Positions 3,926 through 30,750 of a DNA stretch of 64,000 bases are shown piece after piece. The notes below the pieces were generated by a model, which saw nothing but the letters and a program-made list of their open reading frames with translations, searched no databases and had not been told where the DNA came from. Every line of letters begins with the position of its first letter. Position 1 is the stretch's first letter. This stretch comes from Endocalyx cinctus (lineage: Eukaryota; Ascomycota; Sordariomycetes; Amphisphaeriales; Apiosporaceae), in the NCBI GenBank assembly GCA_001600455.1, contig BCKC01000009.1:2170001-2234000 (forward strand), read 5' to 3'. The position numbers and the translations under genes are program-made.

Positions 3926-3942
3926 TTCCTCCCTCGGTGTGC

Positions 3943-4187
3943 CTAACGTACGTAGAGAGTGGTTAGAACTCGCGAAGCTACAATACCACGACAAAATAAT
4001 ACGTCAAGAGGGGGGATGAAAAACAGGAGAGTTTTATATAATTACCTGGAATGGGACTCAGAGGGGGCTGCAAGGACTGGGCTTGCGGCCCCAGACGCAT
4101 GGGAGAAGCACGTTGGCGATTCGCAGAGTTATCGGTAGCGGATGAGCGTCTTCGGTGATGCGTTTGCGAAGAATGATCGCTAGTCAA
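3943..4187 (-). other. Possible alternative 5' exon and intron of the MNN10 gene
   Basis: An upstream frame opens at 4187 (MTSDHSSQTHHRRRSS) and reaches a donor-like site at 4045. Splicing from 4045 to an acceptor ending at 3943 would join it in phase to the codons just before the ATG at 3925. That would add about 53 residues to the cytosolic tail. Its Ser/Pro/Gln/Arg-rich composition resembles the tail it would join. It could equally be 5' untranslated leader. Inference from splice signals only. Confidence 0.3.
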
Positions 4188-6196: not shown

Positions 6197-6218
6197 AGCG
6201 ACTTCTTAAGAAGTCGCT
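6197..6218. repeat. 22-bp perfect palindrome
   Basis: Two 11-base arms, AGCGACTTCTT followed directly by its exact reverse complement, with no spacer. It lies in AT-rich DNA with no gene nearby. It could be a dimeric protein-binding site, a cruciform-prone element or chance. Function unknown. Confidence 0.75.
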
Positions 6219-7189: not shown

Positions 7190-8262
7190 TGGACGTACTA
7201 CCCTCTCTGCCTCTGCTGCTTTGGCGGCTGTTTAGGGGCTTCCTTTAAAAATTTAAAATAAGGTGGACTCTCTAAATAGGAGACCAAAATCGTGAATTCG
7301 TTGTCCGTAACGGGTACCCCGGCCCCGCACGAAATGCGTATATGGTCGAGTTGAGGTAAATGCGTAATCGATTCTGACCTAGGAGTAATAATACATGAAG
7401 TCAGGTAAACGACCATAGCTCGTTATTGTTGACCATTCGGCTTTGTCGCACGAGCCATATTTTTTGTGACGTCACGTCACCCCCCGCTGTTTGCAAATGC
7501 TTTACATGCATGATTTGAGGATAGTCCGATAATGGTTATAGGCGATAGGCCGTGAGCGGTCGATTTAGGTCGCTGAAGCTTCTCGGCGAACCGGGGCTTC
7601 TGCTCGACAAAGCTGTCGCGAGGGCCATGATAATCTACTGATACCGATTGGATGTACTTACATGGTTTGTTGGCATCAATAGCAGTACCGACCTGGGGAC
7701 CACAAACTCCATAGCCCTCGTCCTCTCCAACACTTTCGAATTCTCTAGCGTGGGTGCTCGTGGTTTGGTTGTTGTAGAAGAGAGACATCTATCTTTATCA
7801 CATAGGTGACCCGCTGGCTATCTATGCCGAAGCTCTCGGTTTCCTCAAGCGCCCCCGGTATGCCAAACAGAGGTTGGTTGATAGTGCAGCAGTGTCAAAT
7901 TGTCGGGATCGGCGGTAAATACAGTGGAATATAGGACGGTAGATCACGCTCACAATCGCTGAGTGGTTATCGTGGCACGAGAGGCTCGCCAGTCGTGGGG
8001 CTTACATCGAAATTTGGCTTGGCGTAGATGTAGGTTCTGATTGCTATGGCTCGATTCAGCACAGTTCCAAGCAGCGCTGTCGGGGTTAAGCAGATTCTCG
8101 CACATCGATAGGTATGCCCGTCCCAAAGCCCATCAAAAATCTGATTATCTCAAATTCTCGCTTACGAAAGGCGAGGTGCATTTGAAAGGAGCAACTTCAA
8201 ACTTCAGGGTTTCGGTTCGTTACGACACGACGAAATTTAATACCTCGACGCCCCATTCTTAA
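7190..8262. other. Less AT-rich islet with weak reading frames; possible relic or orphan gene
   Basis: Base composition rises in GC compared with both sides. Three short frames fall here: minus 7788-7477 (103 codons, starts MSLFYNNQTTSTHARE, contains GVCGPQVGTAIDANKPC), minus 7416-7198 (72 codons) and plus 8041-8262. A GTAAGT donor-like site lies inside the first, near the PC residues. An in-frame stop directly precedes its ATG, and there is no signal peptide. I recognise no family. It may be a spliced orphan gene, a decayed gene, or noise. Confidence 0.25.
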
Positions 8263-9308
8263 GTATTAATCTGCCTAGGCTGTTAGGTAGCTGCTTCCTG
8301 AGTACCTATTGTGTTAGATATATATTAGACAGATTCATAGGTACTATATTAGCTGTAATTAAAGACTAATAAGTATATAACAAAATTTCAATAGTAAAAT
8401 ATTACTTGTAACAGTCAGATATAATTCTACAAGTCATTTCATCGCGCGCATGTATTGAATTTGACTCATTAAGATATAAGAAAGACCTATAACCTCTAGA
8501 ATGAGTATCTAATTATTTCTAGATACGGAGTATATGGCATCACATGAGGGGCTTGAATCCATGGATGTCCACTGGTAGATATTGTTTTAAGGAATATCCA
8601 TTACTTGTCTGCTTGTACACTAGGGTTAAGTACCTAGGTAATTTCATTATTTTGTCTACTATAGTGCTTAAGTAGTTGCTTTTAAGAGGTAATCTTGGAA
8701 ATTAGCAAATTAAATCGTGCGAATGGACGATAGCTACCAACTTTTTCTTTGGGCGATCTCGCTTTATGTATGGTGCAACTGGATCCTAGTGGGTAGAGAA
8801 ACAAGGTAAAAAAGTAAAGACGCATAATTTAGTTGGCGGGAAGAAGTGGCAACAAAAGAAAGTAATGTAGCCTTCGGATGTAGGCTCGTATTGACGTGGC
8901 AGCGCATATGTCTATTCATTCATCAGCTGAAAGGGAAAAAAAAAAGGATGATATGAGGGAATGAATACAAAGTACAAGTAGATGTAAAAACCAGCCACTC
9001 ATTTTTACAAGTACATATAACTTTATCAAAGGGAGGGGCCCGGTAACCTAGTGCCAAGTAACTAACCATAATATACTGAAGCAGTGATAAAACCCCCCGC
9101 CAAAACCCGCCAAAACCCCTGCTGGGCTGAGATAGATACAACTGAGATTACGCTATCTAACCAAATTTATCGTTTTAACTTAAACCTAGGATCCACTTCC
9201 GTTTAAACGGATATCTAAACAAAAACAATAATAACTTCTTACTTCGAATCCCATTCTGGAAATTTTATCCAAGACATATACCATACTGCGTATACTACCT
9301 TAATAATT

Positions 9309-9325
9309 TACCACCTTTGGTGGTA
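9309..9325. repeat. Short inverted repeat upstream of the leashin-like gene
   Basis: TACCACC and its reverse complement GGTGGTA separated by TTT, about 110 bases upstream of the ATG at 9434. It could be a dimer-type transcription factor site or a hairpin in the leader. No factor is assigned. Confidence 0.4.
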
Positions 9326-9433
9326 TAATCTTTTTAATCGAAGTAATATATTATTGTTAATTTCTTATAGTATCACTCGACAATCAACCTCGTATATGGA
9401 TTGAAATAGTAGTGATAGGTTTATATCGTCAAG

Positions 9434-12400
9434 ATGATGACGAGAGAACATCATCGCCGGCGGAGTCCAGAAAGCTCTCGCCGCCGGCGCAAAGAGAGGA
9501 GGGATTCTAGAGAGCAGCTTCAACTTCAAAACCAACAAGTACTAACCCCCGCACCGTCTTATTACCAAGAACCTGCCGAATCTGCCTACGCACGAGATCG
9601 CGCCTTGTCTTCCACCTCCTCGTCTTCTTCTACTTCGTCTTCGCTCTTGAATATCTCGAGACCTGTTAAGAAATTCGGCTTCGGGTCCTTCTTTTCAGGC
9701 GGTGAACGAAAACATCGTCGTCGCGTAAAAAAGAGACGGAGTCGCTTCTTGCGGTTCGGGAACTCCTCTTCTTCCTCCGTAGGTTCAGATCTTGCCTTCG
9801 GAAAAGGTTATATCGAACGCAGCAGAAGTCGCGAGTTTAGCCCTCCGAATAATGTCAGACCGAGGAGGAGTGGTGACTTGGAAAGACCAGGCCCTCCGAA
9901 ACGCGCACAGACGGACGAGGAAATCATCGAGTTAGGCCGTAAGTTCGCAGAGATCGCCAGGCAACAGAATACCGAAGATCTTAGAGCTGTGGGCAGATCT
10001 CGTCCGTCGACACTTGTCGGGGCTGCCGCTGCACTTCATCAGTTTCGTCGTACGAATAGCGGTCACCATGACCGTGGCGTCGGAAGTTCTAAACCCCACC
10101 ATCAATCTTCTTCCGACGACTCTGAATGGGAATCGGCTTCGGAAGACGAGTCTTCAAGTTCAGATGACTTTGACGCCGGGCTCGCTTATGGCTCGTCGCA
10201 TTATCTTCCAAATGTCTCCGTAAATAACTCGGTTCATATCCAGAACTCCGTACACTCGAGCCATACCGTCACGAGCCACGCTAGTCAGGATAATGCGCGC
10301 CTTTACCAGAATCCTTCTGTTGTTGACCCAAAGCTGTTTGGGCCGGTGAACTCACTCCGGGGTTATGTTCAGACCCCTTGTGGATTCGAGAAGATAGATA
10401 GGGAGACTGTTGTTGCGGAATCCTCGCGCCGGCAATACGAACCCTCTATTGCCCCTAGTGAGACAGTTTCGTCTGAAGTCCGCCCACTCCAACAACTATA
10501 CCCAGTCCCAACTTCTGATCCTGCTCGCTTTGACGCTGATCGAAGCTCCATTGTCTCGTCTCAGGCGGATTTGACAACACGGTCTCGGCCAGCCCCGGTG
10601 CCACTCCAGCAGCCTAGGCCTATAGCACCGGTCTCTGCTAAAGTATTTGAGTCGGTTGATGTTGACCCAAAGTACTCTCAGAAACATTCGTCTGAGAGTA
10701 CTTTCGTGAAAGCTGCCGCGGCCGGCGTTGTAGGTGCCGCGATCGGTGCCGCCTTATCTTCAGATTCTCGCGACCGTAAGTTTGACCATGAAAAATACGA
10801 TGAGCGCCGAGATCGCGACAGCAAATACCGCTCAAAGTACTCGGACGTTCGGGTGGTCGACGAGAGAGCTGAGAAGCGTAAGAGTCGAGACGACCTTCGC
10901 GACGATCGGTCTGAACGATCTGAACGCTCCGAACGCCGTAGAGAGAAAGAGCCCGAGACCAACCGTGAGTATGAGAGAGTACAACGTCGCCAGGAAAAGA
11001 AAGAATCCAAATCCGACCGTGATTATGAAAGAGAAAACCGCCACCGCGAGAAAAACCGCAACTACGTTGACGACGACCGAAGACGCGAACTGGTAAAGGA
11101 TGACCGTAAGAGCGATAGGAAAGATAGGGAGGACCGTAGCGAGGCAAACTTACCCAGCCGCTCGTCTGCGCTCGACGGATATAAACTTGTGGAGAGATCA
11201 CCGAGCCAGCCTGGGAATATCGTCGTCGACCCTTTCCAGTTCCAAGTTGCTGACGATGCCTTCCAAACACCGAAATTCGCAACACCAATACGGCCTTTGA
11301 CGCCCAACGTAGTAACTGTGGAGCGGGCGCCTGATTTCTCCAGTATGGAAACGTCACGCGACGATAGCTCCCACCCCCCTGAGCGATTAAGCCGTAAAGA
11401 CTCGTATGAGAAAGAACTTCGTGATGCACGCCGTGTATATGATGCCGCAGAGCACGCGACGGCCCCTGTGAGCGCGGCAGCATTTGCAGCAGCAGCCGCA
11501 ACGGTCATGGCAGAAGATCGCCGTGGCCGTAGTCGCAGTCGAGGTGGTGATGAGACTTCGAAGAGGAGGTCCAAGGAGGATGACCTTCCACCTCGTGTGC
11601 GAGACCCCATCCAAGAGCGGGCAGATCAGATATATCGGGAAGAAAATCTTGCTCGTAAGCTCCAAGAGGTGGAGAGGAGATCCCGAAGCAACTCCCCCGA
11701 ACCTTCGGTTGTCGATAAGTACAAGGAAGAAACTCCTACAGTCGTTGAAATTGTATCACCGCCAGATATGGATCGTCCGAAAAAGAAGGGTCGATATGAT
11801 GGGCCTAACGCAGATGTTCGGATTGATAATATATTGAATCACCCCGACGAAATATCCCGCTTCCAAGTTAAAACTACTCGTGGCCGGTCATTCAACTTCC
11901 CTATATACAGTGCTAGAGACCCTTCTGCGGAGAGAGACCGTCCGATGCTCAATCTTGTGCGGCCTACACCGGTAGTTTCGCCAGTGCCTACGCCAAAACC
12001 AGAAAAACAGGAATCGAAGCAGGCTTCAGCACCCAAACCCAAACCATCCAAGCCTGTTTCTGACGAGGTGACGGGGTCGCGGAGTGAAGTAACGTCGACA
12101 ACGTCAGTACCGGCTTCCAAAGCCGTAAGCTGGGGCGAAAACCAGACTAAACACTATGTAGTGGAGAGTCCCGAGAGGGAGGATGATCCCTATTCTGGAA
12201 CCAAGATCATAACGCCAGCCCAAACTCCCAAGTCTCGACCAGTCAAGAAGAGTAGTGGATGGGGTATCATCGCCTCTGCCGTTTCAGGTGCCGTAGCGGG
12301 AGCTGCTGCTTCAAGCGTCCCCGACTCTACTGTTGATACGGAGAAGAATCGGCAGGTTGCTGAATCAAAAGAGCAAGAGAGGCCATCTAGGCGCAGAACA

Positions 12401-15400
12401 TCCATCCAATACGATGACGACTTGTACGACACCGCACCCATATCTGGGCCAAAACCTCCTAGCCCCAAAGATTCCAAGATGCCGGGAGCGTTTGCTGAAG
12501 ATCCTTCTTTTATGGCAAATATAGCTGCCGGCCTTGAGGGCAGTGGGTTCGATCCCAATATCGTCATAAACAACGCTACCTTCCATCGGCGCGATTCACC
12601 GCCTGGATCAAATGAACCTTTTGGACAGTCCGTAAGTGATTTCGGATTGGGTGATAAAACTCGTTCATCTGGATCACAAAGCAGTCAGAAAACCGGATTT
12701 GTTATTGGTGAAATCCCCGATACGCCAGCAGACGAGAAGAGCGCTCCTCTTGACGACTCGGAAAGTTCCTCGAAGTTGACCAAGAAAGAGCGACGAAAGC
12801 TAGAGAAGGCGGCCAAGAGGGACAGTGTCGACAAATCCTCAATCGTTGTTATTGAAGATCCTCCAGAAGAAGAGTCCCGTACAGCTGAAGATGACTGGTC
12901 TGCTACCTCCGGTAAGCTTAGCAAAAAGGAGCAGAAGAAGCGCGCCAAAGCCGCGAAGTCCTTAGATGGGCTGGATGATGATGGCGGAAACGAGAAGCCT
13001 ATCCCACCACCTGAGCCGGAGATCGTCGAGCCTGCTGCGTTAGACGACTGGGACACCACTGCATCCACGAAGAAGAAATCAAAGAAGGGGAAGAAGGCTA
13101 TCGTTATCCAAGACGAGCCACGTGAATCTAACGAGCCTTCAGGTCCCAAGATTTCGGGACCCAACGTGCCAGATGAAGATTTCGGGAAGACTGCTCGAGA
13201 GGAGGCTGTGTTAAGCCGTGATGATAGTTGGTACGTAACTGAGAAACAGGATATGTCGAAAGATATCTCAATTTACGACGAACCTTCATCATTTGCTGCC
13301 ACATCGGAGCTTTCTAGAGAAAGCTCCTACAGAGTAGTGGATGATTCCGGTCCTAACCCAGAGGATGAGTGGACCGTCAGGCCAAAGAAGCTCAATAAAT
13401 CCAAGAAGGAGTTGGAAACCCATGATTCACCGTCCAGGTCGATTGTGGCGTCAGAAGTCTCCTTCGATCTTCCTGCGAAACCTTCCGATTCCGAGCCGGT
13501 ATCAGTACAAGATGATGACTGGGAACCTCAAAAGAAGAGCAAGAAGAAGAAGAAGCGCAGCTCTCTTGCAGAGAGCTCCCTGCCACAATCTCCTTCATTT
13601 CCAGAAGAACCGGAACCGCTAAGGAGACGTCATACCGACGACGAAATCCCGCCCACTAGTAGCTTCGATAACATCGACGAATGGAATGTCCCTGAAAAGT
13701 CCAAGAAGAAGAAAAAGAAGAAGTCGACCGTCGAATCCGAAAACTGGGATTCCCCTGTAGATCCTAAATTAGTCAACGATGATGTGGTTGAAAGCCCCAG
13801 GGAAATGACGGAATCGTTCAGTGATCTGCGTAGTGAGAAAACAGATATTGTAGAAGATCAGTGGGATGAGTTGAAGAAGTCGAAGAAGAAATCGAAACGA
13901 AGCTCAGGTGTTTACGAAGACTCTCCATCGCGTCCCGCTTCACGATCTGCACCGTCGTCGGAGGTCTCTTTCGGAAGTTCCCAGAAGAAATCAAAACGAG
14001 ACTCGTACACGGACTCACCTTCCAGGTCGGCTCCAGCCTCTGAAATTGGCATCGAGGATTCCGGTTCTAGCAGGAAGAGCAAGAAGGAGAAGCGGAGAAG
14101 CGAATCCGGCGGATTTCCTGATGATGGCGACTACCGAAACGAACCGGAGCCCCCGGATAGAGGGAGGGATTCGTTTCAGTTCCAGGACAACGATGTGAGC
14201 TCCGTGGTGTCCGACCCCACCCGCTATAACGAACACAGATCTAGTAGGAGTCGTAGCCGAGTGGATGAATTCGATGATGCCAAGTCAGTCGCCTCGGCTC
14301 CGGGAGGCCGGGATCAAAAGGAACGTAAGAGCTCAAAGTCAGACAAGGATAAGAGGAGCAGTGGAAGCTTAAGTTTCTTCGATCGATTTAAATCATCAAT
14401 CGGAATAGCTGAAGAGAAGGAAAAGCCGCGAAAGTCCGAAGACGGCCAGAATTCTTTTTTAGCTAGTGCCGACGCCCTTGGCGCAGGTGTCGGCTTAACA
14501 GGCGCTGCGATTGCTCTAGCATCTCAGGAGTCCCGTTCGAATGCCACCGATGCTCCTTCGGAAAAGGAAGCCCATTTTATTTCTACCACCCCTGAACGAC
14601 GATTTAGCCCTCCCCCATATATGGATCTTGATCCAGAAATCGTCGAAAGGGAGATCCGACCAGCCATTGACCCTCGTCATGGCGACCTATTACCCTTACC
14701 TCCAAGTACGCCTGGGTCTCCACTTCCTAAGCTTGGTGACGATCTTCCACCCTTGCCGGAGAGCCGGCCTGGGACACCAGAAGATGAAAGGGAACGCTTG
14801 TTGTTAAGCGATATACATACTCATGTGCGCCGTCGTAGCGACACACCCCTCAGGCTGAAAACGCCTAGTCAAAGTGCTATTCCTATTCAGTTCCGCCTCG
14901 GACAAAGGAATACGCCTTCATCCCCTAGTCCATCCTATTCCTCCCCCGTGGCCTCACCAGTCACGGCGACTCCAGAACACGCAAGTACTCCTAAGAGACG
15001 TTCTCGTCCAACTTCATGGGACAGCACAAAATCTTTCAAGCCTCTGCTTCTTCTCCAGCGGGCGTCTAGAGAATTTGGATTTTCACCGCAAACGCCGGAA
15101 CAACCTACTAATGCATTTAATGATTCTCCGTATCACACGCGCGAGTTCCACGACGTAGGGTCTCCTAGTCGTTCACCTCGCCCCTCTACCATTACTGAGC
15201 AGCCCCCTCTAGCTGAGACAGATGAATCTCTTCCTAGGAATCAACTGGATGAATCTGAGCTGTCAAAAGAGGACGTATTATCTATTCCACTTCAACATAC
15301 AACCGACTCGTCATTACGGACAGAAGAACAGTCTACGAATTTGGAACAGCAGGATACTGTAGCTAGCTTGAAAGAATCTCCTTATATTTCATCAGCTTCA

Positions 15401-18400
15401 GATGTGGATGTTAAAACATCGTCACCAAAAGCTGAACCAGTTAATATCATATCAGAAGCCCAAACCTCGCGGGATTTTCAAGCAAGCCCCTTACCGGATC
15501 AAAACATCGAAGACCTTATCCTTTCTTCAACTTTGACTCCTTCTCCTATCCCAGCAGAGAAAGATTTAGAACTGGATGATGCGACAAAAGACCTGGCGAT
15601 CGGTGATCTGAAGGAGCATCCTTCTTCCACTGAGATTCCTGTCGCCGCAGAAATTATCACGGCTGGCGCGGCATTGTTAGAAGACCAGACGACTAGCAGC
15701 AAACTATTTGGCGATAGTGAAGCCGCAGATGCTGTGACTGAAAGCAAAAACATGCAAACTCTGGAACCTGAACCTGAATCTGATACCAAATTGCCCATCC
15801 TCCAGGAACTTACCGAGCCTGCCGATAACATGAGCAAAGAAGATGACTCAATTGAGCCCACTTTCATTCCAGGAAAGAAATCGAAGAAAAGTAAGAAAGG
15901 GAAGGGCAAGGGGAAACAGATTGAGACCGAAGCCGAGGCCGAAACCCAAGAATTCCTTGATGCACCGGAAATTGCTGAGGCCACCCCCGAGACAGACGTT
16001 CCTAGTGTGGAAGATCACAAATCATTATCAACCACTATAGAGAAAGAAGAGGAGTCTGCTCCTGCCAAGCCGTCAAAGAAAGACAAAAAGAAGAAAAAGA
16101 AGAAGACCGCGGAAAGCTGGGAGCCTGATATGGACGAGGCCAAACCTACTGAACCAGCCCCAGAAATCTCTTCTCATGTCGAGGTCCAGGGTGATGATTT
16201 CTTCAATGCCCCAGCCGAACAGCTGCCAACGCAGAAGGAAGCGGAGCCCGAAGCAATTCTGCCTGGTGCGGAATCAGTTACCAACATAGTTTCCGAAAAG
16301 AGCCAAGGGGAGTCTCCAACATCACAACCCCAGGAACCTCAGCTAGAGACGGAACCGAGCATATCGGTTCCTCAAATTGTAGCTTTGGACGAAGCTCCTA
16401 TAGTTCCAGCAGATGAGAAAGCAATTTCCGATAAGAACATGCCTGTCTTGGAGGCTGAAGAGGAAAAGCCTGCTGCCAGCGCCGTGACCGTTGAGCCTTC
16501 TACAAGCAAAGGTAAGAAAGGTAAGAAGAAGAAGGGCAAGAAGCTGTCGTCGTGGGAAGATATATTGAGACAAGCGTCCACATCCACCCGTACCCCCGAG
16601 CCGACTTCTTCTAGCGAGCCCGGTTTGGCAGAAAGCAGCAAGGCTATAGTCCCCGAAACCGCTCTGGAGGTATCCGCACCCATGCCCATACCCGAGCCGA
16701 CCTCTAGCGAACCCGCCCTGGCGGAAAGCGGCGAAATTATAGTGCCTGAAATCGTTGTGGAAGCTCCTACTCCTAAGCTTGAGTCAAGCCCTTCCATCGA
16801 GCCTATCCCTATCCCGGCGGAAAGTGTTGAGGCTATAACCCCCGAAGTCGTTATAGAAGCTCCTACTTCTATACCCGAGCCCACTTCTAGCGAACCCATT
16901 GCGGCGGAAAGCGACGAAGTACTAGTTCCTGAAATCGTTGTGGAAGCTCCTACTCCTAAGCTCGAATCGAGTCCTCCCAGCGAGCCTATCCCGGCGGAAA
17001 GCGTTGAAGCTATAATCCCTGAAATCGTTTTAGAAGCTCCCACTCTTATATCCGAGCCGACTTCTTCCAGCGAACCTATTCTGAAGGAAAGCGACGAAAA
17101 TATAGTTCCTGAAATCGTAGTAGAAGCTCCTACTCCAATGCTTGAATTGAGTCCATCCAGTACGCCTATCCCGGTGGAAAGCGTTAAAGCTATAGTTCCA
17201 GAGATGACTCTAGACGAGCCCATTCCCCTACCTGAGTCGACTTCTTCTAGCGAGCCTGTTCCAGTGGAAAACAGCGAAGCTATAGTTCCCGAAACGACTC
17301 TGGACGCGGCTATCCCCATACTTGAGTCGACTTCTCCCAAGGCCCTCGTTCCGGCGGAAAGCGTCGAAACCCTAATCCCCGAAACCGCTTTGAAAGCTGA
17401 ACCGGTCGTTCAAGACAAGACCGAAGTCATCACGCCGCAAGAGCAGCTCGCTGTTGATACTAAACCAGCGGAAGATATCAAACCGGCGGAAGATACTCAA
17501 CCACTGGAAGACCGGCCTGTCTCTTCAAGCAAGAAATCTAAAAAGAAGAAGGGGAAAAAAGTTGCAACTTGGCAATCCGAGGCTACCACCAGTACAGAAC
17601 AACCACAGTTGGAGTCTCAACCTGAAATCGCAACAAACCCTCAACCAGAATTTTCATCCGAGGTCCAGCCAGAAGTCCAGCCAGAAGTCCAGCCAGAAGT
17701 CCAGCCAGAAGTCCAGCCAGAAGTCCAGCCAGAAGTCGAGCCAGATTTCATTACAGCCGTCGAAGATGTTTCTTTAGATAGGGAACGATCGATAGACCTT
17801 CAAAGTGACTTATTTCCCACAGAGTCCACTCAACAAATCCCGTCAACGCTCCCCTCATCTCAACCCAACGAGTCTCCGATTCACGACACATCAAATATTA
17901 ATGATGACTTAAAGGATGACGGGATGATCAATGATCAAATACCTACCAAAGAACCAGACGATGATTCAGTTGAACCCAAGGAAGATTCACTGGCACCCTC
18001 GACTATTGAAGAGGGAGTACGTCAAGAAATCGAAGAATCGGTTGGGGCGGACACAAAAGACCTGGCCCTGAACGATTCTAAAATAATTGGGCTCGGTGAC
18101 GTGGAAAAAAATTTGCCGCAACCCACGGTGACTAGCAGCGGTGAACATCAAAATGACTTAGTTCCTGCAAATATAGATCCACTTAAGGACCCACTCTTCG
18201 AACCGACTCTGACTGGGACCCTGCAAGACAACTCAGTCCAAGAGGTTGGGGCGGTGGAGGATCCTATAAGTTCCAAAGACATCGCTGAACCGATTCCTTC
18301 TGATGTTAACGAACCATCTTCAATAAGCGGACCACTGGAAGATGTCCAATGGGAAGAAAAATCCAGCTCCAAAAAGAAGAACAAAAAGAACAAGAAAAAG

Positions 18401-21400
18401 CGACAAAGCACCTCAGAGCCTCCTAGCTCAGATCAACAGGTAGACATCACCTCAATTGTGGATACCACAGAAAACGATCTTGAGAAGACAGAAGTGGCAT
18501 CTCAGAGCTTTGAATCTCGAGAGATTAGTGATGATATCGATATGCCTTCTCGAACGCCAATAGAGCCAGTTAGTGATGATATCTGGCAAGAGCCAACGAG
18601 CTCTAGTAAGAAGTCCAAGAAGGGAAAGGAGAAAGCTCTTTTTATAAATGATGAAGAGGTATCACCTGTGCCCAATGAGGAAGCCCTTCCTGTTCTTCAA
18701 GAACCCCGCGACGCCATACCAACTGTATCTCAAGAGCCTCAAGAATCTATAGGCGAAGATATATGGTCGAGTCCTGTGAATACCGGGAAGAAATCTAAAA
18801 AGAAGAACAAGAAATCCCGTCAAATTTCCGAGACTTTCACCCCAGATGAAGAATTAGAACTCAAGCATCAGGAAGATTTGATAGCAGCGCCGAGCAGTGA
18901 AGATGTCAAACTAGAAGTGGATGCTCATGAGAGTGTTCCTTCCTCCCCTAAAACCATAACCATTACTGACACGCCACTTATTGATGAGCCACGAGAACTT
19001 GAGCTCGACTCAAAATCTAGTAAAAAGAAGTCCAAGAAAGACAAGAAAAATCGTGGATCCACTCAGGTTGACTCGCTCGTTACCGAGCCTTCTCAAGAAA
19101 ACTTGGAAATTCCTTCCGCGGAAGGGACAGCGAGTGCCAACCCACAATTCCCGTCAATTACAGAAGATGCAACTTCCTTAGAGTCAACGCAGCTTGAGAC
19201 TGAAGTCGAAACTACAGAAAAGCTCGCCGATGACGACGACGTTTGGTCATCATCTAAAAAGTCGAAAAGGAAGAACAAGAAGCAACAGAGTCAAATGAGT
19301 ACGGAAGACGATAGGAGCTCATCTTCTCAAGATGCTATCACACAGGGTGTTCCTGAATCTGCTAGCGTAGCTGAAGAAGCGCTGGAAGACAAACAACAAG
19401 ACATAGATCCCAGTGTCGCCTCTCCTAAGAAGTCCAAGAAGGAAAAGAAAAATAAGCGGCAAAGTGTTCAGTTCGCTAATCCTCTTGAAGAGACAGTGAC
19501 GATGGATACTTCAGCCACTACAGAATCCCCTTTAGAGCCACCGCAAAGCCAAATTGACAGTTCGATCTCATTACAAGAAAGCCAGCTCAGTGACTCGATG
19601 GTTAGCCAAAACGATTTTCCTACCACTCAAGACTCCAGCAAGACTGCATCCACGTGGGAGACAGACATTACACAACCTAGTGACATAGACAGTCTTGGTA
19701 CTAGCCAGATTCTCGACGAAAGCTCCCACGTGCAGCTTGAAAATAAACCTTTGGAAGAAAATTTACTCGCAGATGAGCCCGTTTCTACTGATCCATTACA
19801 ATCTGAAGACAAAAAGCCAAGCCAGGACTCTGGAGATCAAGAAAGGGTCGTCACAGACGAGTCGCAACATCTTGAGCCCTTGCAAGAACCGCATGATGCA
19901 CGCGAGCAGACCCACCCTGAATCTGGAGTCGTTTCGATCCCAACATTAGAATCCAATGAAGAGTTAGAGTCAGCCGTGCCAGCGAACATAGAGCTTGAGC
20001 AGGAACCCCAACAAATCGATCCTAATTTATCGATTGATCAACCAGAAAACCAATCCACGCCTAACATCCAAGATCCAGAACCTGTTGCTGACGAGGAGTT
20101 TCCCGTGATCACTAAGAAGGGTAAGAAGGACAAAAAGAAGCGCAAGAGTAAGGGTCAAGACAATGTCGAAGACTTTTCAGGCACCTCAACTCTGTTAGAA
20201 GATTCCGATGCCACTAAATCAACTGCAGAGCAACATGACCCTTCGTCGACCGCCCCAGAAACTCAAGAACTTGATCAAAATATACCCAGTGAATCAAAAA
20301 CCGAAAGTTCAGAACCGACAGCGACAGAGGGAAAGAATGTTGCGGATGCAGAGTTCCCCGATTTTAGCCCGAAAAAGTCCAAAAAGGACAAGAAAAAACG
20401 CAAGAGCAAAAGTCAAGACAATGTTGAGGCCTCTTCAGAAACCCAGGCACCAACGGAAACTACCGACATAAACATGGAAATACCGCTACATGCCGATGCG
20501 CCGCCCAACCCACTAGGTCAAATAAACCGGGATGAAAGCCTGGTAGAAAAATCCGAAACAGCTGCACCGGATACATTAGAAATAGAAGAGAAGACTGCAC
20601 AGGATGTCGAGTCCCCCGAAATCGCGACGAAGAAGAGTAAGAAGGACAAGAAGAACAAGCGCGGCAGCAAAGTTGAATATCTCGAACCTACTCTACCTTC
20701 TAGTGAAAGCGCGGGTAACAATCTGGATGATTTGTCTTCACCAACTGTTGAGAGTGAAAATTTAGTGCACTCTACAATACCTATTATTGGTGGTCAAGAG
20801 TCTGGATCTCGACAAGTTCAGGACGCGGAGGTCCCTACTGTTCAGTCTCTCGTATCTGGCGAGGAAGACAGCCATTTAGAGACAGCAGTCCCGAAAGAGC
20901 CCGCCACCTCTACCCACAAATCAGAGTCTCACCAGTCAGATCCTGTTAGCGTTGTCCAGGAAGAGGGTCAGCCACAACTTGAGAGCAGTATCACTAGTCA
21001 ACCGACCTCTTTCACCGAATCACGAGGACCGACGGAAGTCTCACGGAGTGAGAAAACCGAGGAGCCTGTTGTTAAATCAGGACTCGCCGAAGAGCCATTA
21101 ACAACGGAGGAAATGCCTTCAGATTTTACTGTCACCCGCAAGTCCAAGAAAGACAAGAAGAAGAAACGCGGTAGCAAGATAGTTACTCCTGAAGAACCAG
21201 TTCCAGGTCCAAGTCAAGATACAAAAGAAGACTCCATTGATGGCCCAATTAATGTCTCAGTTGATACCCCACTGGCAGGCACCCCAGCAGATAGCAGCAT
21301 TCCTACGGCAGATGAAGACACTCAACTACAGGAAACAGCACAACCAGCTATTAGTGATATCCCGACTACTCAAGAATTTCACAATGTTGAAACTGTTGAA

Positions 21401-24400
21401 GTCTCGCCATCGACTGCGCCAGAATCTCTACCCGACAACCCGACTACACTTGATGAATCTGGCAAGCCAAGTTCCAATATAACTGATCCGGAAGGGAGCA
21501 AGGGTGAAGATAAGAAGCTAGTTGATAGTATTCAGAATGTACCAGAGACAAATGTTGACCTGTCGCACGAACTGGAAAATGCAAGTGCATCTTTGGTTCC
21601 AGACCAGGTAGACGCCGATCTGGTTACTCCTGTGGATGATGCAAAGGATACCGAGATTCCTGACTTCACCCCAACCAAGAAGAGTAAAAAGGATAAAAAG
21701 AAAAAGAAGAAGACGGCTGATATACAGGAAGAGGAGGCAGCGACAGATCAACAAGACACCTCCGTACCAGCTGAAGCCGATGCTCCAAGTTTCCTAGAAA
21801 ACCCCAAAGAAGGCGAACCTGTAGAGTCGGCTCCTACCAAAAAGAGCAAGAAAGACAAGAAAAAGAAGCGACTTAGCGCCTGGGAAGACGATATAGCACA
21901 GGCTGAGCCGAACTTAGTGTTGGCGGGTGCTCCTCAAGATACTTCTTTAGACGCTTCCCAGAGTGTCCCGGCAGAAGCCCCTCAAGATCCCCTTACAGAA
22001 GCCCCCCAAAACGCTTCTGTAGATGCTCCTCAAGATATTGCTGTAGAAGCTCCCCAAGATGTCCCCATAGAAACTTCTCAAGAAACTTCTCAAGAAACTT
22101 CTCAAGAAACTTCTCAAGAAACTCCCCTAGAAACTTCTCAAGAAACTTCTCAAGAAACTCCCCTAGAAGCTCCTCCCCAAGAAGATCCTCAAGAAGCTCC
22201 CCAAGAAGCTCCCCAAGAAGCTCCCCAAGAAGCCTCTCAAGATACCGCCATAGAAACTTCTCAGGAGCCTTCTTTGGAAGCTCCTCAGGATGTTTCTTTA
22301 GACACCCTTCAAGATACGACTCAAGATGTTCCTCAAGATATCCGGGTAGAGACGGACACTACAGCATCTGAAATGGCGAGAGAAGTAGATCCTGTACATG
22401 ATTCATCTATTGAAGCCCCCGCACCTGACACTTTTAATACTGAGGACGTTATAGACCCAGTTCACATGAAGAAAGGGAAAAAAGACAAGAAGAAAAAAAA
22501 CAAGGGTTTGTCTTCGGAGGATAACCAGCCAAAAGAAGAGCCGAGCTCAGCGCCTAGTGGTGTAATGCAAGGGGAATCAGGCTCATTATCTAACGATGCT
22601 CCTGAGAGCAGTGAAGTACCGGCGGCTGACATACATGATCCTAACAACTCGACAAATAAAGCCACCCCAGTCGAGGGACTTAGTGAAGCAGTTGAAGTTC
22701 CTTTAGCTGGCAATTCACAAGTTGAAGACAAACTATCCACTACTGAACCCGAACCCCCCAAGACTAATGTTGAAGACTGGGCACCACCCAAGAAAAGTAA
22801 AAAAGACAAGAAAAAGAAGAAATCTACTTCTTGGGAAGATAGTTCATCCCAGCCTGAGCCACAGCCGGCTCCTCTAGATTCTCTCGACGTTCCCGATGCT
22901 CCCAAGGATAGCAACGTGCTAGATTCAGAGATCTCCATACCCGATACCCCCAAAGATGACACCAAAGACACCCAGACAACAACTGACACTCCTATTCTTG
23001 AAACTACCTCTACCGAGACCGCCATGCCTGAAACTTCCACTCCTGAGACTACATTGGCAGAGGATTCCATGAATCTCGGTATATCGAAGAAGAGCAAAAA
23101 GAAAAAGAAGAAGAGTACTTCTACCTCGTTGGAGGATACCATCCTCCAAGGTGGAGATACTTCTGCGCCTCCAGTGTCAATGGACAATACCGAAAGCAGC
23201 AGCGTGCCAGAGGTGAACGCATCCTTACCTGAGAGCCCCAAGGACGAAGACTCCATGGACTTCCCATCTACCAAGAAAACCAAGAAAGACAAGAAAAAGA
23301 AGGCTAACTTATGGGAAGCCGAATTTCCACAGGAAGAATCAAACCCAGTTGCTTTAGAGACGACAAATACCCCGGAAGTGAGCGAAACAATAGATCCCGA
23401 GGTCCCTATACCAGAGACTACGAAAGATGACGAGGCCGATTTTATCCCCACAAAGACGACAAAAAGGGACAAGAAGAAAAACAAACAAGTCAGCTCGTCG
23501 GAAGACGGTGTAGCGCCCGAGAAGCCGGAGGAACCATCGCAGCAAGCAGAGGAAATAATTCTGGAAGCCGGTGAACCAAGCTCACTACCCCCAAGCCAGA
23601 CAAGAGCAATGGATACGACTACTCCTTTAGAAGCCCCGAGAGACGAAGAGACGATCGATTTTTCTCCTAAGAAGAAGAAGAAGGATAAAAAGGACAAGAA
23701 AAAGCGGGCCAGCAACTCGGATTTTCAACTTGAAGCTGAGGCCTTGAACGAGGAAGAACAATCAAGAGTCGAGTCCACGAGAAAAAATACATCAGAATTG
23801 GTCGATCCCACAATATTAGATGCCCCAAGCCTCACTGAGGAAGACCCTTTGGCTAGCCAGGAGCTCCATTCGCGCACAGAAATGAGCATCGATGATGCAA
23901 TGAAGTCGGTTCCTTTAGATGCGACAACTGCCGCAGAGGAAGAACTGCCACTAGAACAACTTGAAGGCAATACAAAAGATAAAGCTTTTCCGGCACCCAT
24001 TCCTGATTCTACTGTGGAAGTGCCAGAAACAGTGAATCTGGAGAATACCATCCCTACGACTGAAGAAGCATTGCGGACAAGTTCGCCTGCACAAGAAATT
24101 GGCGATTCAGCTGTTCAAGACCGTGCAATGGAAGCTATTACCCAAGAAGGTATACCTAGTCAAATCCCCGAGGTCCTGACTGGCGAATCGAAGTCTGTCA
24201 AGCAAGATGAGCTCCCTACCAGTTCAGATGATATCGGCTTCGTCACTAGTAAAAAGTCCAAAAAAGACAAGAAAAAGAAGAAGGCAGCTACCCAACTCGA
24301 GTGGGAGCCTGAGATGCCCGAAGGACAGAGTACTGAACAGATCGATAATACTCAGGAGCAAGCCGAACAGCCGCCATCGTCGATTCATCAAGATTCAGAT

Positions 24401-27400
24401 CAAATCGTTGAAGTTCAAGCAAACGTCAAGGAGACAATACCAGCTGTGGAGTCTCCTGGAAATACTTTGATTGAGACCTCTGGAAGCAAAAAGTCGAAAA
24501 AGAAGAAGAAGCGAGTCGGTGAAGTTGAGTGGGAACAAGAACAAGAACCGACTCCAGAGCAAGAACCGACTCCAGAGCAAGAACCGACTCCAGAGCAAGA
24601 ACCGACTCCAGAGCAAGAACCGACTCCAGAGCAAGANNNNNNNNNNNNNNNNNNNNNNNNNNNNNNNNNNNNNNNNNNNNNNNNNNNNNNNNNNNNNNNN
24701 NNNNNNNNNNNNNNNNNNNNNNNNNNNNNNNNNNNNCAAGAACCGACTCCAGAGCAAGAACCGACTCCAGAGCAAGAACCGACTCCAGAGCAAGAACCGA
24801 CTCCAGAGCAAGAACCGACTCCAGAGCAAGAGCTAGCATCAGAGGTGACACCGACGCCAGCAGAACCTCTGGAAATTACGGAAAATTCAGATGACACTAC
24901 GATGCCCCAAGATCTTGAAGACAACCAACTCAACTCGGAAGATGTCCAGCCTGGCCTGGAGGAGATTTCTCACAAGCTTGAAGCGAGTGTTTCAATCCAG
25001 AAAGACACTCAGTCTAGTCTCGAAGAATCCCAGCCCGTTACGAAAATTGAAAACACTCCCATTGAGTCGATTCCCGAATTCACGACTACGAAGAAATCCA
25101 AGAAGAAAAAGCGTGCAAGCAAAAGCGAGGTAATGGCTGAGCCTTCGGCTGCAACATCAGAGCTTGAAACTCAACAGTCAATACTCTTGGATGAAACCCC
25201 TGTGCAAGAGCCCGTAGAACAACCTGCTCAACAACCCCCCGATGTTGACAAACGTCCCATGGCTTCAGAGACTGTCGAGACTTCAGAACATATCTTTCCC
25301 GAATTTATAACGAGCAAGAAGTCTAAAAAAGAAAAGAAGAAGGCAAAGAAAATGGCTGCTGCTGCTGCTAGTGTCGACACCGAAGAGCCTGCTCCTAACG
25401 AATCTACTCGTGAGCAGCCTGCTCTTGAAGAGCCAGCTCCTAAAGAACCTACTCCTGAGCAGCCAGAACCTACCTCTGAAGAAACTGCTCCCGAAAATCA
25501 TGTTCCTGAAGAACCTACTCTTGAGCATCCTGCTCCTGAAGAGCCTGCTTCTGCGGAGCCTGCTTCTACAGAGCATGCTCCTAAAGACCTCATTCCTGAA
25601 GAATCTGCTCCTGAAAATCCTGTTCCTGAAGAACCTACTTTTGAGCAGCCTAGTCCTGAAGAGTCTGCTCCTAAACAGCCAGAACCTACCTCTGAAGAAA
25701 CTGCTCCTGAAAATACTATTCCTAATGAACCTACTTTTGAGCAGCCTACTCCTGAAGAGCCTGCTTTTGCAGAGCCTGCTTCTAAAGAGCCTATTCCTGA
25801 AGAGCCTATTCCTGAAGAGCCTATTTTTGAACAGCCTGATCCTCAGCAACCTGCACAGACCTACGAAATCAGCAATGTCCCTACACCAAACGACACAGAG
25901 CAAGTCTTTGAACCAGCTTCTGAATTGGTCTCGGAACCGAAAGACACTGATATCAGCGTCTTGGAACAGCAAAGAACTGCCCCGCAATCTCATCCAGAAG
26001 ATCAAAGCACACAGTTAGAAACGTTGCAAGAAACAAGTACTCTCCCTTTAGAAACTCCGCCAGAAAATAGATCTCAGGAAGAAGATACCGCAACAGAGCC
26101 TGCAAGCCATACCACTCAAGAAGAGTCTTCTGTTATTGCTGCGACGAGAGATGTCGAACAGGTAGACCAGACTATTACGAAGATTGTGCAAGACCATCAG
26201 CCCAGCGATGGGGGTGAGAGCAAACGAGATCCCCCTTTAGAAGAGTCCACCGACCAGAGCGCTCAGGAGCCTCTTCAGGTCGAAGTTAATGATCTCCCCG
26301 AATTCTCCACCAAAAAGTCAAAGAAAGAGAAAAGGAAATCAAAGAAGGCACAAACTACACCATCTGAGGTCGAGTCGGAACCTAAAAGCAGCTTTGGTAG
26401 CAATTTACAGACCTGGGACTGGTCTAATATTGAAACCGAGACCCAATCAGAAGGGGCTGCAGATAAACTAGCTGCCGGTATCCCTTCGCAGTTAGAGCCG
26501 GGTGACACGACACAATTAATTGCTGAGCACGAGCCTCGAGATGGCCAAGAACAAGAACAACAACAGGCACAGCTGCCAACTGACAAGTTCGCTGACGAGA
26601 TGCCCGTGCCGAAGGAGCCCACCCTTGAATCTGAGCCTGTGCCCGAATCGGTAGCGTTTGGTGGAACTCGTAAAAAGTCGAAGAAAGAAAAAAAGAACAA
26701 GGGTATTGTGCAAGCTGAAAACGAGGCACCATTTGAGTCATCAACCCAAATTCGTGACGCAACTCTCGATTTTGATTCAAACGAGAGCATTTCTACGCAA
26801 CCAGCTATTCTAGAATCTAAGCCAACCGAATCGACAGAGGCTGAATGGCCCGAATCCTCTACAAAGAAGTCTAAGAAGGATAAGAAGAAACGCAAGGCAT
26901 CCGGGACGTCAACACCTCTGGATACTGTCCACGAACAATTACGCCTAGAAGAAACTTCACAGCCTACGGAAGCACCCGAGCAAGAATCCGCGACTAAAGA
27001 GTTGGAAGTCATCCCAGAAATCGTGGTTCCAGTCGATTCTGTTCCTCGAACTCCTTCGCCCGCTGGACCGCCCTCGATCAATGTTGACCTATCTCCAGCT
27101 CAACTGAGCAGTCACGTCGAACATGATCGTCCATTTGATCAATCCACCCAACCAGGGAAGAAGCTAAGAACTAGATTAGGCGACGATAGTACTATAGGCT
27201 CAGAAACTTTGCCAGCTACCCACGATGTATCAGTTATAGAGAGTGTCCAGATGGCCCGAGATGAAACGAAGCTCGCGGGTGAGAAGGAAGATGTCGTGCA
27301 AGCGATTACACCGCGACGAGAGGCAGCCGCCTCGTACTTTGAGGGGCACATGCCAAGTGAAACCCACCAGGAGTCACAATTCAAGTTAGGGGATGATGTT

Positions 27401-30400
27401 TCGGCGACCACTGGGCTTTTACCGACAACTCCCTCTCGAGATGTCGCCGTTTCTTACTTAGAAACTCAATATGACACAAAAGCAACTAGCGACAAGACTC
27501 GCCAGGACTTGGATAAGCAGGAAAGTCAGGAACTCTTGGAGGATACAGCAGCCCGAGAGGTTGCAGCATCACTGATGGAAACTTCGCCCACGAAATCAGA
27601 CAAAAACAAACCGAAGAGAAAAAACAAAGTAACCAGTGACGTTGAGACTGCTGTGGAGGCTGCTGCCACGGGTGGAGCTGCTCTTGCTGCAGAAACACTC
27701 GGTGGGTCTAAGAAGAGTAAAGGTAAAAAGAAGCAAAAACATGTCGACAAGAGAACAACAGACAGCGATGACATATTCGATGACCCTGCCCTTTGGGAAA
27801 GTTCGGAGCGTAAACCTTTCGAGGAAGGTAGTCGGCTAGACAACGATGCGGGCGAGTTCTGGGCAAGACCGTCTGAAGAAACCGAAACCCAGCTTGCACC
27901 ATCACTAATGGAACCCACGGACATACCTTCGTCCTTTGATGATCAACCAAAGCCACAAGCTTCAAAGGAAATTTCTACCTGTGATGGCACTGCGGAGAGT
28001 CCAGTAGTGGGAAGAGGAGAGCAGCCAGACTCGGTCTTATCTCACCACACGGGCAAAGATTCTAAAAAGAAGGAACAGCAGGCGACTTCAGAGGTTATCA
28101 AAACATTAGATGGTTTGGATACTTCAGAACATGTTGAAGAGCAACAGAGGGGATTGGAGGATAGCAGAGATCAGGCTCAATCAATTATCATGCCAGGACC
28201 TCACAACTTGGACGCGTTTAACCGAACACCGTCTCGCGGTCTTCCGCCAGTGGAAGAAGAAACGAACGAGCAACTAGAGAAAGAAGGGGGATTCCGCTTT
28301 CAGGATTCAGAAGCCAATCGAGATAGCGGCTTTATTCCGGATTCACCTAAGCCTCAAAGACGCAGCATGGAGGAAAGCTCGGGTCAGCGCGACAGCGGAG
28401 TACACATGACAGAAAGCGTGGGCCGTAAATCAGAAACGCTGTCTGATATAGATGAAGCGGGGGCTCGACTTTCATGGACAAGTACAGATGATGAGCGTAA
28501 AGGATCACGGACGCCCGGATCGGACGAACGACGATCTAGGAGATCTCCTTTACGACAAGAAGCAACAAGACTTGAAACACCGACTCGTTACGAGGTAGAT
28601 GATGATCGGAATAAAACAGACACGGATCCTCAAAAACGACGTTCATCTAAATATCCTACCGATCTTGGACCGACACCTAAACTAAGTACACCGATATCTA
28701 CACATACACCGACATCTTCACAAAACAAAGAACAACGAAGTGTTTCGGATAATGTATCAAGCCGAGCGGGAACGCCGAGATTGGAAAGCCCAATAAACAT
28801 GTATCCAAGCTTGACTAGAAGATCTACTTCTAATACAAGCATATCCCGACTTCGAACTCCTGAACCGCTTAGATATCGGCCTGATTCTCCAGGCAACCAA
28901 AGTATCCACAGCCTTCGATCAGGTAACAACACTCCACCACTAAGAAGAGTGGATAAGCGAATGAGTGGAGACTTAAGATCTCTGGGCCAACAAAGCAATC
29001 TAAGCCAATTAAGTCATCGATCTAATGCATCTAACGCATCTAACTCCAACCTCCTCCAAAAAGAATCTGACCGCCGAATACAACAAAATACAACACCCGT
29101 TGCTAACGAAGGCCGTGTCCGAGCCAAGGACATGACCGATGTATATGTAAGTTATTCATTATTATCGTCTTATTAAATTAAAAAGACAAAGAAAGAAAAA
29201 AGAAACTAACCGGTTTTAAATTCAATTAGGATGGCGTCGGCGAAGGCCGTATGGGATCTCCAAGATCGCCTACGAGACCTCATAGTATGCGACGACGACA
29301 AAGTATGCAAGTACTTGAATTAGAATCCAGAGTTGAACAACTTATTGCCGAAAATCGCGCACTTGCCGAAGCGCGAATTCAAGCTGAACAAAACCTAAAT
29401 CAACGAACGACGTCTGCCATCACCGATCGAGACGCCGAAATCGAAAGTCTAAAAGCCTCGTTGGAATGGCTGCGAAAAGAAGTTACAAGACTGACGGAAG
29501 TAAACGAGGGTCTTCACAGCGCCAATAATCTATTGGCTTTACAACATAGCGAAAAATATGGCAGGCTTGAAAGTCAACACGAGTCGACCGCGCGCGAGTT
29601 AGCAGAGCATCGAGACGCCAGAAGTCAATTCAATCGCACTCTGCAGGCGAAAGACGCCGAGATTGAGCAACTTCGTGCGCAACTCGAAGCAACAAAACAA
29701 CAAATCAGGGAGATGCAAAGACAGATACTCGCTACTAAGCCACCTGACGACGAGTTCCTCCGACTCAAGGACGAAGATCATTTCGATCGTCGTTGCCAAC
29801 AACTATGCTCCCACGTGCAGCAATGGGTGCTTCGTTTCTCCAAGTTCTCGGATATGCGCTCGTGCAGACTTGCGAGCGAAATCGACGACGAAAAGATTGT
29901 CGACAGACTCGAGGGTTGCATCCTGGATGGAACGGATGTGGACGACTATCTCAGCGACAGAGTTAGACGTCGGGATATCTTCATGTCACTGACCATGAAC
30001 ATGATTTGGGAGTTTGTCTTTACCCGATACCTCTTTGGTATGGATCGAGAACAACGTCAGAAGCTCAAGTCGCTCGAGAAGCTCCTGACCGAAGTTGGAC
30101 CTCCTCGGGCGGTTAGACAATGGCGGGCCGTCACGCTCACGCTATTATCCAAGCGACCGGCGTTTGGTGATCAGCGCAATCAAGATACGGAAGCAGTCGT
30201 TCAGGCGATCTTCCAGTCACTGTGCATGATCCTTCCGCCTCCTTCTAACCTGGAGGCGCAGATACAGTCGCAACTTCGCAGGGTGATGCGTGAGGCGGTC
30301 GATCTATCGATCGAAATGCGTACGCAGCGAGCCGAGTTCATGATGCTTCCTCCTCTTCAGCCAGAATACGACGCGAACGGGGATTTAGCGCAGACGGTGA

Positions 30401-30750
30401 CATTCAACGCCGCGCTTATGAACGAACGATCCGGCGATGCGGCTCCTAACGAGGAGCTAGAAGCGCAGGGGGCTACGGTTCGCTGCGTCTTATTCCCGCT
30501 TGTGGTCAAGAAAGGAGATGATAACGGAGTGGGAGATGACGAAATCGTGGTCTGTCCGGCTCAAGTGCTTATCGCTAGAGCACCTCGGCCAACCATCCGA
30601 ATGGTGACCCCATCATCGGAAGCGGGAGGCGTACCACTCTCAAGAGGGGCTACCCCACTATCCAGAGGGGCTACTCCATCGGTGCAAGCCAATAGCACCA
30701 TAAGCTTAAGCATGACGGACGCACCATTGACTCCCAAGTCTAACAGGTAA
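9434..30750 (+). CDS. lah: Giant leashin (LAH)-like Woronin body tether, about 7,077 residues
   Basis: Exon 1 is 9434-29146 (6,571 codons without interruption) and exon 2 is 29230-30750. The 83-base intron (GTAAGT...TTAG) is in phase. Protein order: a basic Arg/Ser-rich N-terminus; a more ordered segment near residues 155-210 (TDEEIIELGRKFAEIARQQN); charged disordered sequence; three Gly/Ala-rich hydrophobic stretches near residues 426, 943 and 1677; then some 5,000 residues of acidic Pro/Glu/Ser/Thr sequence with about 40 lysine-rich blocks (KKSKKDKKKK type); a coiled coil at about 6,600-6,740; and a compact C-terminal domain at about 6,747-6,960. Known: leashins are giant, repeat-rich ascomycete proteins, often annotated 'involucrin repeat protein'. 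One end binds the Woronin body and the C-terminal part binds the septal pore. In Neurospora the locus is split in two. Identification rests on size, architecture and remembered resemblance, so it is likely but not proven. A 100-N gap interrupts exon 1, so true length is uncertain. Confidence 0.75.
16598..17412 (+). repeat. Nine degenerate ~30-residue repeats (A/B alternating)
   Basis: About nine units of roughly 90 bases. Typical unit: EPTSSSEP.., then AES.E.IVPEIVVEAPTP. Neighbouring units alternate between EPTSS-type and ESSPS-type openings, which suggests growth in 180-base pairs. The first and last units are the most diverged. It lies within exon 1 of the leashin-like gene and keeps the frame. 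Confidence 0.85.
17663..17734 (+). repeat. 12-bp tandem repeat, six copies (Val-Gln-Pro-Glu)
   Basis: GTCCAGCCAGAA repeated six times with no base differences, followed by a diverged copy (Val-Glu-Pro-Asp). The near identity points to recent expansion. It is in frame inside exon 1 of the leashin-like gene. Confidence 0.9.
22070..22241 (+). repeat. 12-bp tandem repeats encoding QETS and QEAP
   Basis: GAAACTTCTCAA units (Glu-Thr-Ser-Gln) mixed with ETPL variants, then a run of Gln-Glu-Ala-Pro units. It sits in a wider field (about 21930-22350) of APQD/EAPQ-like repeats. It is in frame inside exon 1 of the leashin-like gene. Confidence 0.85.
24545..24829 (+). repeat. 18-bp tandem repeat (Glu-Pro-Thr-Pro-Glu-Gln), unresolved
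   Basis: Five identical copies of GAACCGACTCCAGAGCAA before the assembly gap and five identical copies after it. The assembly broke inside this array, so at least ten copies exist and the real number is unknown. It is in frame inside exon 1 of the leashin-like gene. Confidence 0.95.
24637..24736. other. Assembly gap of 100 N
   Basis: Exactly 100 N. To continue the 18-base array in register the missing length must be 13 + 18k (85, 103, 121 and so on), and 100 does not fit. It is therefore a placeholder size. The reading frame still appears open because 100 and 13 + 18k both leave remainder 1 on division by 3. Confidence 0.97.
25380..25860 (+). repeat. Degenerate Pro-Glu five-residue repeats with a larger duplication
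   Basis: Some 30 units of the (P/E)-E-P-x-P / x-E-x-P-x type. Within it a longer block recurs: QPEPTSEETAPEN followed by EPT-E-P and PEEPA-AEPAS, at about 25458-25570 and again at about 25680-25790. This indicates a segmental duplication of about 225 bases on top of the short repeat. In frame inside exon 1 of the leashin-like gene. Confidence 0.8.

What the first reader, a model, noticed from the sequence alone, without database searches (positions are those of the whole stretch)
9434..30750. Unsplit giant leashin-like locus: one 19.7-kb exon, about 7,077 residues
A reading frame of 6,571 codons without an intron is exceptional for a fungus, and the product would be among the largest fungal proteins. 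It joins in phase to a second exon that carries the coiled coil and C-terminal domain. In Neurospora the leashin locus is split into two genes; here the two ends appear to be one protein. That would give a physically continuous tether between Woronin body and septal pore. Identification is by architecture and memory, not by a search.
Basis: partly seen in the sequence, partly recalled or inferred. Interest (0 to 1): 0.75.

Follow-up and report, generated by a model that had tools for sequence, protein, structure and literature searches.

The report
Ordinary one-piece fungal leashin gene

Summary
The locus is real. Exon 1 (9434-29146) is 6,571 codons and joins through an 83-base phase-0 intron to exon 2 (506 codons).

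Protein searches identify an orthologue of the unsplit leashin (Lah); the nearest relatives are Xylariales (84% over exon 2). Of 164 listed relatives, all giant by the search's length filter, 133 carry both conserved ends on one predicted protein, and 22 of those are at least 7,077 residues long. HEX-1, the Woronin-body core protein, is in the same genome. Ng et al. 2009 (PMC2690989) report one-gene leashins of 5,936-7,480 residues across sequenced Pezizomycotina and infer that the Neurospora/Sordaria split is derived. 'Unsplit' is therefore ordinary.

Possibly new by-products: the non-alignable linker keeps 28 lysine-rich modules flanked by W/F, a pattern 121 of 164 relatives share at five or more modules; and the pore-anchor domain has paralogues here and a compact predicted fold that includes the helix I equate with the published transmembrane segment.

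The parts
9434..29146 (+). Exon 1, 6,571 codons (34 of them X because of the gap)
   Evidence: ORF, donor site, codon usage 64 of 64 windows
9434..15133 (+). Conserved N-terminal part, residues 1 to about 1,900; residues 1-344 of the Neurospora protein bind Woronin bodies in published work
   Evidence: Per-100-residue alignment coverage; residues 1-450 match the N-terminus of 156 of 164 relatives at E<=1e-5; PMC2690989
15134..26833 (+). Diverged acidic linker, residues 1901-5800, net charge -453
   Evidence: Almost no alignable relatives (low-complexity masking on); composition
13523..26902 (+). 28 lysine-rich modules (KKSKKDKKKK type), residues 1364-5823, median spacing 132
   Evidence: Fixed rule; 200 shuffles of residues 1901-5800 give at most 1, against 25 there
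24538..24831 (+). 18-base tandem array encoding EPTPEQ, interrupted by the gap
24637..24736 (.). Assembly gap, 100 N, true length unknown
26834..29146 (+). End of exon 1, increasingly conserved towards the splice site
29147..29229 (+). Intron, 83 bases, GT..AG, phase 0 (inferred from sequence)
   Evidence: both sides of the junction conserved among relatives as continuous protein (DMTDVY-DG..GEGR, consensus)
29230..30750 (+). Exon 2, 506 codons and stop
29278..29736 (+). Long helices of exon 2 (residues 17-169), coiled coil presumed
   Evidence: AlphaFold2 model of exon 2, low overall confidence (pTM 0.42)
29743..30597 (+). C-terminal anchor domain (corresponds to LahC of A. fumigatus by position)
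   Evidence: Many invariant columns in 30 sequences; AlphaFold2 pTM 0.85; paralogue in the genome
29977..30033 (+). Hydrophobic helix IFMSLTMNMIWEFVFTRYL that I equate, by counting from the C-terminus, with the published transmembrane segment
   Evidence: PMC5345055

Best explanation
This is the unsplit leashin (lah) gene of a xylarialean filamentous ascomycete; no second copy of its N-terminal 1,000 residues was found in the genome. One mRNA, spliced once, is inferred to make one protein of about 7,000 residues. Its conserved N-terminus is expected to bind Woronin bodies through the membrane protein WSC; a long acidic, probably disordered linker punctuated by lysine-rich modules spans to a coiled coil and a conserved C-terminal domain expected to sit at the septal pore rim. 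The organelle is thereby held beside the pore until wounding. Shown here: sequence anatomy, homology of both ends to giant single predicted proteins of Sordariomycetes and Leotiomycetes, coding continuity on both sides of the gap, HEX-1 in the genome. Taken from published work on relatives: partners, localisation, tethering. Inferred: a single transcript, and that the gap is filled by more of the same in-frame array.
For: Exon 2: 479 giant proteins at E<=1e-3 among 4,710 candidates, best 84% identity. Residues 1-500: 57 of 740 scored candidates, same two relatives on top. 133 of 164 listed relatives have both ends (26 N only, 5 C only), 4,303-7,919 residues, median 6,086. Conserved ends, diverged acidic middle as Ng et al. 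describe. Fusarium relatives of 7,425 and 7,438 residues fit the published 7,480 for Gibberella zeae. HEX-1 orthologue, PDB 8qlw E 1.8e-86. Frame best of six in 64 of 64 windows.
Against: No direct comparison with a protein named Lah, LAH-1 or LAH-2 (none among the listed hits). Database relatives are predicted gene models, many named 'Involucrin repeat protein'; 26 of 164 showed only the N-terminal end and 5 only the C-terminal end, which may be partial models or real splits. The gap and the lack of transcripts leave one exon and one mRNA unproven. Leucine, part of the published 'PELS' character, is not among the eight commonest residues of the linker.
Confidence: 0.92

Rival explanations
1. 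The locus is functionally split as in Neurospora: an internal promoter and terminator inside exon 1 give a LAH-1-like and a LAH-2-like protein although one frame runs through.
For: Precedent in N. crassa, where an annotated 10,821-residue gene proved to be two transcription units (PMC2690989).
Against: No non-coding stretch in exon 1 (64 of 64 windows coding); one open frame on both sides of the gap; the split is reported for the Neurospora/Sordaria clade and both ends sit on one model in 133 of 164 relatives. Promoters can lie in coding DNA, so this is not excluded.
Confidence: 0.06
2. The gap is a wrong scaffold join or hides a stop or an intron, so the ends belong to two genes or the exon is shorter than stated.
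For: 100 N of placeholder type inside exon 1.
Against: The same 18-base repeat in the same frame on both sides; nearest relatives have both ends on one protein in the same order. The linker next to the gap does not align with relatives, so they do not test the join itself.
Confidence: 0.05
3. The protein's main job is a polarity scaffold at the hyphal tip, as for Neurospora LAH-2, rather than Woronin-body tethering.
For: N. crassa LAH-2 is carried to the Spitzenkorper with SPZ-1 and MYO-5 and is needed there for COT-1 and GPI-1 (PMC7275032, passages).
Against: The Woronin-body-binding end is on the same protein and HEX-1 is present. The two jobs do not exclude each other.
Confidence: 0.05

Closest known systems
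Unsplit leashins of Pezizomycotina (5,936 aa A. nidulans to 7,480 aa Gibberella zeae, PMC2690989; A. fumigatus Lah, PMC5345055)
   Same: Giant size, conserved ends, coiled coil then conserved C-terminal domain, diverged acidic P/E/S-rich linker, in a fungus with HEX-1
   Different: Nothing found that sets it apart as a kind; whether its one long exon and lysine modules occur in Aspergillus was not tested
Predicted proteins of Xylariales such as those of Xylariaceae sp. FL0016 (6,606 aa) and Anthostomella pinea (6,299 aa), many relatives named 'Involucrin repeat protein'
   Same: 84% identity over exon 2, 55-59% over the N-terminal 1,900 residues
   Different: Linker sequence does not align; lengths differ
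Neurospora crassa LAH-1 and LAH-2
   Same: Same published end-domain plan when the two are joined
   Different: There two transcription units with an internal promoter and an alternative cortex-binding exon (PMC2690989); here one open frame

Membership tests
Leashin (Lah), unsplit type | Conserved N-terminal region shared with giant leashin-type proteins | tested here: met
   57 hits of 740 scored; residues 1-450 match 156 of 164 relatives at their N-terminus
Leashin (Lah), unsplit type | Conserved C-terminal domain after a coiled coil, on the same protein | tested here: met
   479 hits of 4,710 candidates; 133 of 164 relatives carry both ends; coiled coil presumed from long helices
Leashin (Lah), unsplit type | About 6,000-7,500 residues with a poorly conserved, acidic, P/E/L/S-rich middle | tested here: met
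   7,077 with the placeholder gap; charge -453 in residues 1901-5800, E 14.2%, S 11.7%, P 11.1%; L not among the top eight
Leashin (Lah), unsplit type | Organism makes Woronin bodies (hex gene present) | tested here: met
   HEX-1 on contig C8, ORF ends in SRL; the organelle itself not observed
Leashin (Lah), unsplit type | Direct sequence similarity to A. fumigatus Lah or N. crassa LAH-1/LAH-2 | tested here: inconclusive
   Not among the listed hits; only 120 of 479 and 120 of 464 hits are shown
Leashin (Lah), unsplit type | Transmembrane segment in the C-terminal 288 residues (PMC5345055) | tested here: inconclusive
   Hydropathy 1.0 by Kyte-Doolittle but favourable on the octanol scale; segment lies in a compact predicted domain
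Leashin (Lah), unsplit type | Binds Woronin bodies via WSC and the septal pore rim | not testable with these tools
   Needs cell biology
Split leashin of the Neurospora/Sordaria type | Internal promoter and terminator, alternative cortex-binding exon | tested here: inconclusive
   No non-coding stretch inside exon 1, but RNA data are needed to exclude it

The most novel reading that the evidence does not exclude
Leashin is a sticker-and-spacer tether with a soluble anchor. Its linker has lost alignable sequence between orders but in many lineages keeps a pattern: acidic, proline-rich spacers broken about every 130 residues by lysine-rich modules preceded by acidic residues and W/F, which could give electrostatic, kinase-tunable elasticity. 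The septal-pore anchor is a compact cytosolic domain of an undescribed fungal domain family with other members in the same genome, not a membrane-spanning protein with an extracellular part; the published truncations and VV-to-EE change would then act by breaking the fold.
Probability: 0.33. Interest if true: 0.5.

Novelty: new member of a known kind. Interest (0 to 1): 0.22.

Why it matters
As a finding it confirms the published picture that leashin is one giant tether outside the Neurospora/Sordaria lineage, now with 133 two-ended protein models among 164 examined. Two by-products could matter if they hold: a shared charge-and-aromatic pattern in a linker described as non-conserved, which bears on how the tether stretches and lets go, and a structural argument that the pore-rim anchor may be a folded cytosolic domain rather than a membrane-spanning one. 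It also shows that public databases carry many of these genes under the uninformative name 'Involucrin repeat protein'.

Tried and rejected
Rejected: that an unsplit leashin is exceptional (PMC2690989). Rejected: a chance open frame. Held unlikely, not excluded: a wrong join at the gap and an internal promoter.

Earlier, stricter counts of two-ended relatives: 86 of 147 (one long masked query, 6 with neither end), 117 of 147 (separate end queries); 133 of 164 uses the rule on all listed proteins and is the one quoted.

Full report
Observation. The window lies in a 44.76-Mb genome of 15 contigs. The ORF starts at 9434 and stops at 29176. A canonical intron, GTAAGT at 29147 to TAG at 29229 with CTAAC before it, joins codon 6,571 in phase 0 to a frame of 506 codons ending at 30747, stop to 30750. 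The left flank stops 5 bases into a unit and the right flank begins at base 1, so a pure array needs 13+18k missing bases; 100 does not fit and looks like a placeholder. As 100 and 13+18k agree modulo 3, the frame is the same on both sides. 34 of 7,077 residues are unknown and the true length is open.

Is it coding? In 64 of 64 windows of 600 bases, codon usage learned from five other ORFs of the window and exon 2 favours this frame over the other five. In 100 first-order Markov simulations of 64 kb the longest open run in three frames was 260 codons. No internal non-coding stretch suggests a promoter, though promoters can lie in coding DNA.

What is it? Exon 2 as query against giant proteins (the tool admits only 0.55-1.75 times the query's length, here about 3,900-12,400) gave 479 hits at E<=1e-3 among 4,710 candidates; the best of the 120 shown were Xylariaceae sp. 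FL0016 and Anthostomella pinea at 84% identity. This places the organism in or near Xylariales (inference). Residues 1-500 gave 57 hits among 740 scored candidates, the same two on top. A search from a Cercophora relative gave 464 of 641 scored, 120 shown. These searches list 164 distinct proteins. By the rule (E<=1e-10, ends in the right place) 133 have both ends, 26 the N-terminal end only, 5 the C-terminal end only. The 133 are 4,303-7,919 residues long, median 6,086, and 22 are at least 7,077. Alignment coverage of 147 relatives is high for residues 1 to about 1,900 and rises again from about 5,800 to the end; between them it is almost nil, with low-complexity masking on. Relatives in Sordariales other than Neurospora, such as Podospora comata (7,284) and Triangularia setosa (7,593), also carry both ends. 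No Neurospora, Sordaria or Aspergillus protein was among the rows shown.

What is known. In Ng et al. 2009 (PMC2690989; Results, Discussion and the list of supporting files read) lah homologues occur in all Pezizomycotina sequenced then, 5,936 residues in A. nidulans to 7,480 in Gibberella zeae, with conserved ends and a poorly conserved acidic middle. N. crassa residues 1-344 bind Woronin bodies through WSC. One ancestral gene is inferred to have been split in the Neurospora/Sordaria lineage, and fusing LAH-1 to LAH-2 restored a pore-linked pattern. Fusarium relatives here of 7,425 and 7,438 residues fit those sizes. In A. fumigatus the N-terminal domain binds Woronin bodies and the last 288 residues go to the pore rim (PMC5345055; sections 2, 8 and part 1 of section 3 read). 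That paper says LAH-1 has no homology to other Lah proteins, which differs from Ng et al.; I could not test it. The one-piece state is thus the normal one.

Surroundings. HEX-1 is encoded on contig C8 (PDB 8qlw, E 1.8e-86; ORF ends in SRL). Six loci of the Mpv17/PMP22 family exist, the family to which Wsc belongs (abstract of PMC7318627 in listing); which one is WSC was not determined. No second copy of the N-terminal 1,000 residues was found.

The linker. By a fixed rule (12 residues with at least 8 K/R, at least 6 of them K) the protein has 28 lysine-rich modules at a median spacing of 132, 25 of them in residues 1901-5800; 200 shuffles of that stretch gave a mean of 0.01 and at most 1. The usual form is acidic residues, then W or F, then KKSKKDKKKK. 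Within 12 residues of a module W is 10.7 times denser than in the rest of the linker (11 of 600 against 5 of 2,930 residues). Of 164 relatives 121 have at least 5 modules in the middle; pooled over them W is 6.6 times denser near modules, above 1 in 101 of 121; F/W lie upstream 1,549 times, downstream 673 times. Against a universal role: 43 of 164 have fewer than 5 in the middle, and Trichoderma, Cytospora and Monosporascus have 1-5 in the whole protein. Many relatives are close kin, so counts are not independent. Local charge is more segregated than in shuffles (variance 8.9 against 4.5, s.d. 0.3). That the modules act as stickers is my inference.

The anchor domain. Exon 2 has no Pfam match above cut-off. 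The same genome encodes a protein of 448 residues on C4 (two exons joined by me at an inferred intron) with a coiled-coil-like part and this domain (BLASTP 2e-20, 26% identity over 331 columns; genome search E 3e-12). The C4 protein in turn finds one on C1 (E 6.9e-5), and that one finds one on C13 (E 9e-26); C1 and C13 link to leashin only through C4. AlphaFold2 on the domain with 17 sequences gave pLDDT 86.2 and pTM 0.85 for the best of five models, the others 60.5-80.9. PDB comparison found no clear relative. The published transmembrane segment ends 219 residues from the C-terminus; the hydrophobic helix here ends 238 from it, so the match is by approximate position. It lies at model residues 79-97, mostly in helix 73-94. 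Its Kyte-Doolittle mean is 1.0, no higher than a second stretch at residues 323-341 (1.1), while the octanol scale favours insertion. It holds an acidic residue (E in 137, D in 1) and an arginine (138) in the 138 of 164 relatives that my pattern matched. I had no coordinates, so burial was not measured. Pelleting, the ER-like pattern of the isolated segment and the VV-to-EE result remain published evidence for the membrane model.

Verdict. A correct recognition of a leashin gene with accurate splice arithmetic; an ordinary member of a known family, a missed assembly gap, and a claim of exceptionality that the literature and 133 two-ended relatives contradict.

Noticed in passing
   Followed up: yes
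L003 (G000:C4:2865190-2866317, - strand): Small two-exon gene (about 448 residues, intron inferred) with a coiled-coil-like part and a domain paralogous to the leashin C-terminal domain; more distant members on C1 (L015) and C13 (L017).
   Followed up: partly
13523-26902: 28 lysine-rich modules with W/F concentrated beside them, a pattern shared with many relatives although the linker does not align.
   Followed up: partly
residues 423-441, 675-693, 944-962 of exon 1 (about 10700-12320): Short Ala/Gly-rich hydrophobic stretches in the conserved N-terminal part, the most hydrophobic 19-residue windows of the whole protein; possibly membrane-contacting.
   Followed up: no
57040-62960 (-): BAR-type ORF (just under Pfam's cut-off) next to a RhoGEF ORF on the same strand; perhaps one gene for a Rho-type exchange factor.
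   Followed up: no
36921-39017 (-): 698-codon ORF without a Pfam match at E<=0.01.
   Followed up: no
L011 (G000:C8, 1222-1767 -): HEX-1 orthologue ending in the peroxisomal signal SRL.
   Followed up: yes
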